From Fimbriiglobus ruber (GTDB taxonomy: Bacteria; Planctomycetota; Planctomycetia; Gemmatales; Gemmataceae), in assembly GCF_002197845.1 (NCBI RefSeq), contig NZ_NIDE01000004.1:1116001-1180000 (forward strand): a DNA stretch of 64,000 nucleotides. Reading direction: 5' to 3'. Each line of letters starts with the position of its first letter. Position 1 is the stretch's first letter. This document shows, one piece after another, positions 29,079 through 30,708 of the stretch. The notes beneath the pieces were generated by a model. That model was given only the letters and a program-made list of their open reading frames with translations, made no database searches and was not told where the DNA came from. The position numbers and the translations under genes are program-made.

Positions 29079-29309
29079 GGCATACCTGGAGTCGAAGCCA
29101 CATGAACGGCGTTGGGGTGGGGTCTTTCAATCCAACCGGAAGTCCGCGTACCGTTTCGGCAAGAGGAGCGGTTACGCCGACGCAGGGAGGGCCTTCACAT
29201 CAAACTCACGTCACTCTAACCGCGTTCGCTCCTGGCGTCGAGACCCTAATCAAATCGCAAAATCGTGTGGCCGGCGCCTGGTCCTCGGGACGGTTTCTGT
29301 GGGGTGAAA

Positions 29310-29633
29310 TCTTGGGGCTCGGCCCCAAACCCCGCCGGAGGGGTTGAACCCCTCCGGACCTCCCCGCTTGCTCCCGATCAGTGGGCCGATCCCAAGGCGG
29401 ATCGGCCCACTGATCGCTCGCGGAACCGTTTGTTGCCCAAGCTGGAAGTCATCGACTGTTGCTCGCGGCGGGAGGACATCGACCATTCGCTTAGTTCCTG
29501 CTGCAATCGACCCAGACCCCTGCGAGCGACCCGCGGACTCATCCGCTCTGGGATGAGTCCGCGGGTCGGGAGCAAGTGGGGAGGTCCGGAGGGGTCCAAC
29601 CCCTCCGGCGGGGTTTGGGGCCGAGCCCCAAGA
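29310..29633. repeat. multi-hairpin inverted-repeat element with 68-bp arms
   Basis: Arms 29310-29377 and 29566-29633 are inverted copies matching at 66 of 68 positions. Each arm itself contains TTGGGGC/GCCCCAA and CCGGAGGGG/CCCCTCCGG stems. Inside the arms sit two further perfect hairpins: GATCAGTGGGCCGATC (29376-29391 with 29400-29415) and an 18-bp stem CGACCCGCGGACTCATCC (29527-29544 with 29551-29568). The whole block is non-coding and nearly symmetric. Confidence 0.85.
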
Positions 29634-29681
29634 CGCCCTCCCGTCAGGGCGCCTTGAGCAAAGGCTCGGTCCCAATAAATA

Positions 29682-29710
29682 AAGGCCCGGGGACACGTCC
29701 CCCGGGCCTT
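29682..29710 (-). terminator. rho-independent terminator of the exported Tyr/Cys-rich gene
   Basis: On the minus strand an 11-bp stem AAGGCCCGGGG/CCCCGGGCCTT with a 7-nt loop is followed by TTATTTATT. It lies 30 bp after the stop of the gene at 29740-30708. Confidence 0.75.
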
Positions 29711-29739: not shown

Positions 29740-30708
29740 TTAGCGGCTGACCACTTTGAACTCGCGGGCGTCGAAGTCGTCCACGGTGATCTTCTTGTGG
29801 AACTGGGCCTTGCCGTCGCCGTTGCCCACGTACATGTACCACGTGCCGGCCGGCAGCTTGAGATCGAAGTTGCCGAAGTCGTCGGCCGTCGCGTACTGGC
29901 GGACGGTAGAATCGGCCGCGCTCACGAAGACGAGCTTCGCCCCGGCCCGCGGGGTGATTTGGTCGTTTTGGACCACTTCGCCACGCAGAACAGCCGGACC
30001 GCTACGGGAGGTCGTCCGGGCGTTGATGGTGCCCGTGTATGGACGGGACTGTTGCGAAGTCCGCGGCATCGAACCGGGAATCGTCGGGAGCCCTTGCGGC
30101 GCGATCGTGCCCCCAGTTTCCGGCATCACCGACGGCGGGTTCTGACGCAGTTCGTCGATCCGCGGCGACGCCCCGCTGGCGGCCGGCGCGTCGCAAGTCG
30201 CGCAATCGTAGGTCTTCGTGGTCGGCCCGTAGTAGGTGTAAACGGGTCTCTTTTCGCAGACCTTCCGCTGCACCTGGACCGGAACCATCTGCATCCGTTC
30301 GACGACTTTCATGACCGTGTTGCATTCTTCCTTGCGCACGTAGCTCGTCCGCGGGACGGTCACTTGCTGGCTGCAGCCGCTGCACGGATCGTAGTAGCTG
30401 CGCTGGGTGTACGTCGTCACCGGGTCCCAGTAATAGCTCTTCACCTGGACCGGAACTTCGACCCGTTCGATCTGCTGCTTCATCACCGTGACGGGTTCGT
30501 AATAGCAGCGCTGTTCGTACTGAACAGTGGTCGGCGCCGGGGCGGGCGCCGAGTAGTAGCTGGTCTTCGGCTTCGGCTTGCAGTCCCAACAGCAGACCTG
30601 GAACACGTTGTCCCAGCCGGCGTTCGCGGGGGCGGCCGTGAAAGCGAGCCCGGCGACGGTGAGGACCGGGGCGACCGCGCGAGCGGCCAAACGCAAAAAG
30701 TGTGTCAT
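29740..30708 (-). CDS. exported Tyr/Cys-rich repeat protein
   Basis: This 322-residue protein has a signal peptide ending near APANA. The middle (about 35-175) is rich in Tyr, Cys and Val with loosely repeated units: CYYEPVTVMKQQIERVEVPV, YYWDPVTTYTQRSYYDPCSG, VMKVVERMQMVPVQVQRKV. The C-terminus (~235-322) looks like a carboxypeptidase-regulatory beta-sandwich (VLRGEVVQNDQITPRAGAKL, FDLKLPAGTWYMYVG). Such proteins are typical of Gemmataceae envelopes and may be cross-linked structural components (inference). A terminator follows at 29682-29710. Confidence 0.75.
   Translation of the reverse strand: MTHFLRLAARAVAPVLTVAGLAFTAAPANAGWDNVFQVCCWDCKPKPKTSYYSAPAPAPTTVQYEQRCYYEPVTVMKQQIERVEVPVQVKSYYWDPVTTYTQRSYYDPCSGCSQQVTVPRTSYVRKEECNTVMKVVERMQMVPVQVQRKVCEKRPVYTYYGPTTKTYDCATCDAPAASGASPRIDELRQNPPSVMPETGGTIAPQGLPTIPGSMPRTSQQSRPYTGTINARTTSRSGPAVLRGEVVQNDQITPRAGAKLVFVSAADSTVRQYATADDFGNFDLKLPAGTWYMYVGNGDGKAQFHKKITVDDFDAREFKVVSR

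What the first reader, a model, noticed from the sequence alone, without database searches (positions are those of the whole stretch)
29310..29633. Symmetric multi-hairpin element: 68-bp arms that contain their own stems
Arms match at 66 of 68 positions in inverse, each arm has two internal stems, and two more perfect stems (16 and 18 bp) sit inside. The layout is a hierarchy of palindromes spanning 324 bp without coding capacity, directly upstream of a surface operon. I know no named element with this exact design.
Basis: seen in the sequence. Interest (0 to 1): 0.6.

Follow-up and report, generated by a model that had tools for sequence, protein, structure and literature searches.

The report
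Dispersed mobile element of nested palindromes
The window holds one of about 36 scattered copies of a short mobile DNA element, found so far in only this bacterium, whose hairpins-within-hairpins seem to be kept nearly perfect by DNA copying itself rather than by RNA function, which makes it an unusual natural record of how palindromes evolve.

Summary
In detail: 68-bp arms match at 66/68, with two inner stems (both 18 bp) and two small hairpins per arm. It is not an isolated oddity. The same genome (12.36 Mb) holds about 36 independent loci of this family; none was found in 94 other family genomes. The unit is larger than 324 bp: most copies carry a specific flank A (~45-68 bp) on one side and flank B (~73 bp) on the other, found nowhere else. 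Copies with an intact B end are bounded by 9-11 bp target-site duplications (8 of 11 with 0-1 mismatch; control 3 of 110), so the family has moved. The B end is fixed, the A end variable, and they are not inverted repeats of each other. Stems differ between copies by paired changes (256 double, 1 single) nearly without G-T wobble; the two arms of a copy share private variants; interiors occur in both orientations. This fits DNA-level template switching (arm homogenisation, spacer inversion), not RNA selection. Best reading: a lineage-restricted, non-autonomous foldback (MITE-like) element with unknown mobilising enzyme. The window copy itself has a truncated B flank and no detectable duplication.

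The parts
29270..29309 (+). Flank A of the repeat unit (variable outer end; similar to ..CCGGTGCCTGGTCATGTGGACGGTTTTTGTGGGGTGACG)
   Evidence: 88% match of A consensus plus H1 at C4:1145270-1145329; A occurs only next to cores
29310..29633 (+). Symmetric core of the element (324 bp)
   Evidence: about 36 loci in the genome
29310..29377 (+). Left long arm (66/68 inverse match to right arm)
29566..29633 (-). Right long arm
29312..29328 (+). H1 hairpin, left arm (almost never varies between copies)
   Evidence: helix 1; the 22-base H1 block occurs 69 times in the genome, 0 for the reversed control
29335..29357 (+). H2 hairpin, left arm
29375..29416 (+). H3 hairpin type I, 18-bp perfect stem, 6-nt loop; hypervariable stem with conserved apex
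29422..29521 (.). Central spacer, variable in length and content between copies, in either orientation
29527..29568 (+). H3 hairpin type II, 18-bp perfect stem, 6-nt loop
29586..29608 (-). H2 hairpin, right arm
29615..29631 (-). H1 hairpin, right arm
29634..29652 (+). Remnant of flank B (CGCCCTCCCGTCAGGGCGC); the rest of B, including its fixed ..CAAGCCCCTC end, is missing in this copy
   Evidence: B consensus does not match at this copy

Best explanation
The feature is one copy of a lineage-restricted, non-coding mobile element (a bacterial foldback or MITE-like repeat) that inserts between genes and makes 9-11 bp target-site duplications. Shown: the dispersed family, the conserved unit A-core-B, the duplications, the fixed B end and variable A end, the paired changes without wobble, the sharing of private variants by the two arms of one copy, and the inversion of interiors. 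Inferred: (1) the element is moved in trans by an enzyme not identified here; (2) its nested palindromes are kept nearly perfect because a polymerase that switches strand at the hairpins copies one arm from the other, which also inverts the spacer between them; (3) the almost invariant parts (H1, H2, the H3 apex ATCCCAAAGCGGAT and the H3 foot GCTCCCG/CGCTCGC) are what the mobilising enzyme needs, while the H3 stem sequence itself is free as long as it pairs.
For: Copies: ~36 loci, both strands, many contigs. Flanks A and B occur only next to cores. Target-site duplications: 8 of 11 copies with an intact B end have the 9-mer after the B end repeated at the A side with 0-1 mismatch, against 3 of 110 swapped pairs; examples L022 GGGGAGACCG, L023 AACAGGTCGGG, L013 CGGCAACCAAA. 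Stem upkeep: on 64 half-elements 98.5% of cells are paired, 256 double changes, 1 single change, covariation score reached by 0/500 shuffles; H3 census 1082 of 1100 Watson-Crick, G-T 2, A-C 7, 42 distinct stem starts. Arms of one copy: H2 apex identical in 23 of 31 copies, 2.4 expected by shuffling, maximum 9; arm identity 0.933 within versus 0.879 between copies, 0 of 5000 permutations. Inversions: order of H3 types from A is I-II in 12 copies and II-I in 9; spacer forward in 21, reversed in 6; at least 5 changes on a weakly supported tree of arms. Published: template switching between inverted repeats homogenises arms and inverts the spacer (PMC8604942) and can make compensatory double changes in one step (PMC8794818).
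Against: No transposase or other mobilising gene was found linked to it; reverse transcriptase and Y1 transposase loci share no element sequence. The A end is variable and the two ends are not inverted repeats, which ordinary MITEs have. Three of 11 intact-B copies and the B-truncated copies, the window copy included, show no clear duplication. Only one genome carries the family, so no empty sites could be compared. Gene conversion between arms or cruciform resolution could give the same homogenisation and inversion.
Confidence: 0.72

Rival explanations
1. It moves through an RNA or single-stranded copy joined at a staggered nick (target-primed copying), as the fixed B end, ragged A end and duplications of slightly variable length suggest. 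This is a sub-hypothesis about how the element moves.
For: B end fixed at ..GCAAGCCCCTC, A end 48-69 bp from the core, duplication directly next to both; longer copies share further A sequence (L023, L018:2012, L013), so shorter ones look truncated; ends are not inverted repeats; many reverse transcriptases in the genome, mostly group II intron type and two retron-like.
Against: No sequence link between any reverse transcriptase locus and the element; no 3' tail; a DNA transposase with one well-defined end could leave the same trace.
Confidence: 0.15
2. It is a structured RNA (a regulatory RNA or 5' UTR element) whose stems are kept by selection on the transcript.
For: Strong fold (z -21); intergenic; in 14 of 15 tandem gene pairs where it could be scored the A end faces the start of the downstream gene.
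Against: 256 double changes but 1 single change and almost no G-T pairs, whereas RNA selection tolerates wobble pairs; H2 apex bases, unpaired in the local hairpins, are shared between the two arms of a copy; no Rfam family reaches its threshold; interiors found in both orientations.
Confidence: 0.1
3. It is a transcription terminator or insulator family, dispersed and kept for that role.
For: GC-rich hairpins; the B end often lies within about 0-100 bp of the upstream gene's stop codon (from coordinates).
Against: Only 3 of 33 classified copies lie between convergent genes, 9 between divergent ones, the opposite of what terminators favour; the gene before the window copy has its own GC hairpin at about 29682-29710; H1 and H2 have no T run behind them.
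Confidence: 0.07
4. It is a REP/BIME family moved by a RAYT (Y1) transposase.
For: Intergenic inverted hairpins; three Y1 transposase genes in the genome.
Against: RAYT genes are described as always flanked by their REPs (PMC2817692); the three Y1 loci carry no arm; Y1 transposition is not known to make target-site duplications (general knowledge).
Confidence: 0.05

Closest known systems
MITEs and foldback transposons (long inverted repeats, 8-11 bp duplications)
   Same: Short, non-coding, dispersed, long inverted arms, duplications of 9-11 bp, some larger copies with unrelated sequence between the arms
   Different: The true ends (A and B) are not inverted repeats of each other, one end is variable, the arms contain further hairpins, and no cognate transposase was found
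REP/BIME repeats with RAYT transposases (PMC2817692)
   Same: Inverted pairs of GC-rich hairpins between genes
   Different: Not flanking any Y1 gene, far longer, with target-site duplications
Mitochondrial repetitive and double hairpin elements (RHE; Allomyces, sponges; PMC2800124)
   Same: Hairpin-forming mobile repeats with complementary substitutions in stems and unknown moving mechanism
   Different: Bacterial, longer, hierarchical, and with duplications, which the Allomyces elements are reported to lack
Template-switch sites at quasipalindromes (PMC8604942, PMC8794818)
   Same: Arm homogenisation, spacer inversion, one-step double changes
   Different: Here a whole multi-copy family carries the pattern at several nested levels
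Parvovirus terminal repeat (recalled, analogy only)
   Same: Long stem enclosing two smaller palindromes, inner part in two orientations
   Different: No replication protein or virus linked; chromosomal and dispersed

Membership tests
MITE / non-autonomous transposon | Multiple dispersed copies | tested here: met
MITE / non-autonomous transposon | Target-site duplication at the ends | tested here: met
   8 of 11 intact-B copies versus 3 of 110 controls; not seen at the window copy
MITE / non-autonomous transposon | Terminal inverted repeats at the duplication-flanked ends | tested here: not met
   A and B ends differ and the A end is variable; the long inverted arms are internal. So it works like a MITE but is not filed as one.
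MITE / non-autonomous transposon | Autonomous relative with the same ends encoding a transposase | tested here: not met
   B end occurs only at these copies; L041 and L038 carry ORFs without Pfam match
REP/BIME | Associated RAYT gene flanked by cognate repeats | tested here: not met
   three Y1 loci lack the arms
Structured RNA family | Covariation that passes through G-U pairs on the transcribed strand | tested here: not met
   1 single change against 256 double; G-T 2 of 1100
Structured RNA family | Match to a known family | tested here: not met
   no hit at gathering score
Structured RNA family | Stable transcript | not testable with these tools
   no expression data
Retron msd / group II intron product | Sequence shared with a reverse transcriptase locus | tested here: not met
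Template-switch site | Arm homogenisation within a copy | tested here: met
Template-switch site | Spacer inversion | tested here: met

The most novel reading that the evidence does not exclude
A bacterial element that spreads by copying a folded single strand (RNA or DNA) into a staggered nick, with a fixed hairpin end and a ragged other end, and whose palindromes are regenerated at each round by self-templated copying.
Probability: 0.15. Interest if true: 0.85.

Novelty: new variant of a known kind. Interest (0 to 1): 0.58.

Why it matters
Perfect stems with many paired changes are commonly read as proof of RNA function. Here 64 half-elements in one genome show hundreds of paired changes with almost no wobble, shared variants between arms, and inverted spacers, so DNA copying alone may give covariation of that strength; this is a caution for RNA discovery and a ready test set. 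The fixed-end, ragged-end insertions with 9-11 bp duplications also point to a mobilising process that does not match the usual two-ended transposon.

Tried and rejected
Structured RNA (rejected on lack of wobble; Rfam). Terminator (gene context). RAYT/REP. Retron or group II intron origin (no sequence link). Empty sites inside the genome: A and B are never found without a core. Relatives: blastn in 58 genomes, exact H1 in 40, covariance model in 94 family and 391 phylum genomes; one weak hit outside (G297, 42.7 bits), which shows only a similar two-hairpin motif. Plasmids and phages: only short chance-like matches. A literature search for planctomycete palindromic repeats gave nothing, and the arm sequence is not printed in any held paper.

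Full report
Observation. The core at 29310-29633 is as described: 68-bp arms matching at 66 positions, H1 and H2 hairpins in each arm, and two perfect 18-bp stems between them. Folded as one DNA strand it forms a long stem topped by the two H3 hairpins and a central loop (z -20).

Copies. The window is C4:1116001-1180000 of a 12.36 Mb genome (a size I recall for Fimbriiglobus ruber; identity not tested). Searching that genome with the core gives 29 full-length copies (best-strand identity 74-87% apart from the window copy), five with a longer or rearranged middle, three half-elements and a few fragments. Two of the full copies lie in a 4-kb stretch that is 99.98% identical on two contigs and may be one locus, so about 36 loci are independent. 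The 22-base H1 block occurs 69 times, its reversed control never, and not once in 40 relatives. A covariance model of the half-element finds nothing in 94 other genomes of the family, and in the phylum sample only one weak look-alike.

Unit and ends. Beyond the core, most copies share flank A on one side and flank B on the other; searches with A or B find them only next to cores or, for A, joined to H1. Immediately after the B end ..GCAAGCCCCTC lies a 9-11 base word that is repeated on the A side: L010, L012, L013, L014, L015, L022, L023, L029, and L036 with one mismatch. In a formal test 8 of 11 copies pass at 0-1 mismatch against 3 of 110 swapped pairs. The A-side repeat lies 48 to 69 bases from the core, so that end varies; long copies share additional A sequence, so the short ones look truncated (read). 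The window copy has A, but only the start of B, and no clear duplication.

How the palindromes are kept. On an alignment of 64 halves, 35 pairs are formed in 98.5% of cells; there are 256 cells with both sides changed and one with one side changed, and no shuffle reaches the covariation score. H3 stems: 1082 of 1100 Watson-Crick, 2 G-T, 7 A-C, in 42 sequence types. RNA selection would be expected to leave wobble pairs; none accumulate. The apex of H2 is not paired in the local hairpin, yet is identical in the two arms of a copy in 23 of 31 cases, 2.4 expected. Some copies have turned the H3 foot GCTCCC/GCTCGC into the perfect GCTCCC/GGGAGC (L012, L021, L037), and L033 has the whole H3 apex inverted. 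The interior occurs in both orientations relative to A (12 to 9) and the spacer relative to the H3 stems (21 to 6), with at least 5 changes on a weakly supported tree. Template switching is published to produce arm homogenisation and spacer inversion (PMC8604942) and one-step double changes (PMC8794818). That this is the process here is inference; arm-to-arm gene conversion and cruciform resolution are not excluded.

Context. By a simple codon-usage gene finder, 21 copies lie in tandem gene pairs, 9 between divergent and 3 between convergent genes. Where A and B could be told apart in tandem pairs, A faces the downstream gene in 14 of 15 (sign test p about 0.001; the gene finder and side assignment are rough). 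Whether this reflects insertion or selection is open.

Mobilising enzyme. None found. The genome has 16 reverse transcriptase matches, among them group II intron proteins and two retron-like ones, and three Y1 transposases, none sharing sequence with the element beyond 13-17 bases. L041 and L038 carry unrelated ORFs of about 150-160 codons between arms, without Pfam match.

Verdict. A real, mobile, lineage-restricted foldback repeat, a new variant of a known kind, with an unusually clear record of DNA-level palindrome upkeep and an odd one-fixed-end insertion pattern.

Noticed in passing
L041:2215-2703; L038:2270-3046 (minus): Two long copies enclose unrelated ORFs (162 aa; one AT-rich and apparently foreign) between the arms, as if cargo; no Pfam match.
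   Followed up: partly
contig C1 1338513-1338712 (in L027): Tandem array of flank A plus H1 (45-bp unit, about four copies) next to a full element.
   Followed up: no
L094-L099, L136 and viral loci L100-L135: A short motif of the same grammar (GGGGC-NNN-GCCCC followed by AAACCCCG, and/or GGAGGG..CCCTCC followed by GGACCTCC) occurs in Clostridia, Magnetococcales, another planctomycete and viral contigs; homology or convergence not tested.
   Followed up: partly
L039:2166-2367: Spacer contains another inverted repeat (GTGGGGGCACGTTTCCAACGTGCCC), possibly a different palindromic family.
   Followed up: no
L070 (C1:1346958), L071 (C17:1415261): Two retron-like reverse transcriptases, under the curated cut-off of retron St85 RT.
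   Followed up: partly
L033 and L034 (C17:1071657, C3:438012): 4-kb stretch 99.98% identical on two contigs, one near a contig end: duplication or assembly overlap.
   Followed up: partly
window 29682-29710: GC-rich inverted repeat (AAGGCCCGGGGACACGTCCCCCGGGCCTT) after the stop of the minus-strand gene 29740-30708, likely its own terminator.
   Followed up: no
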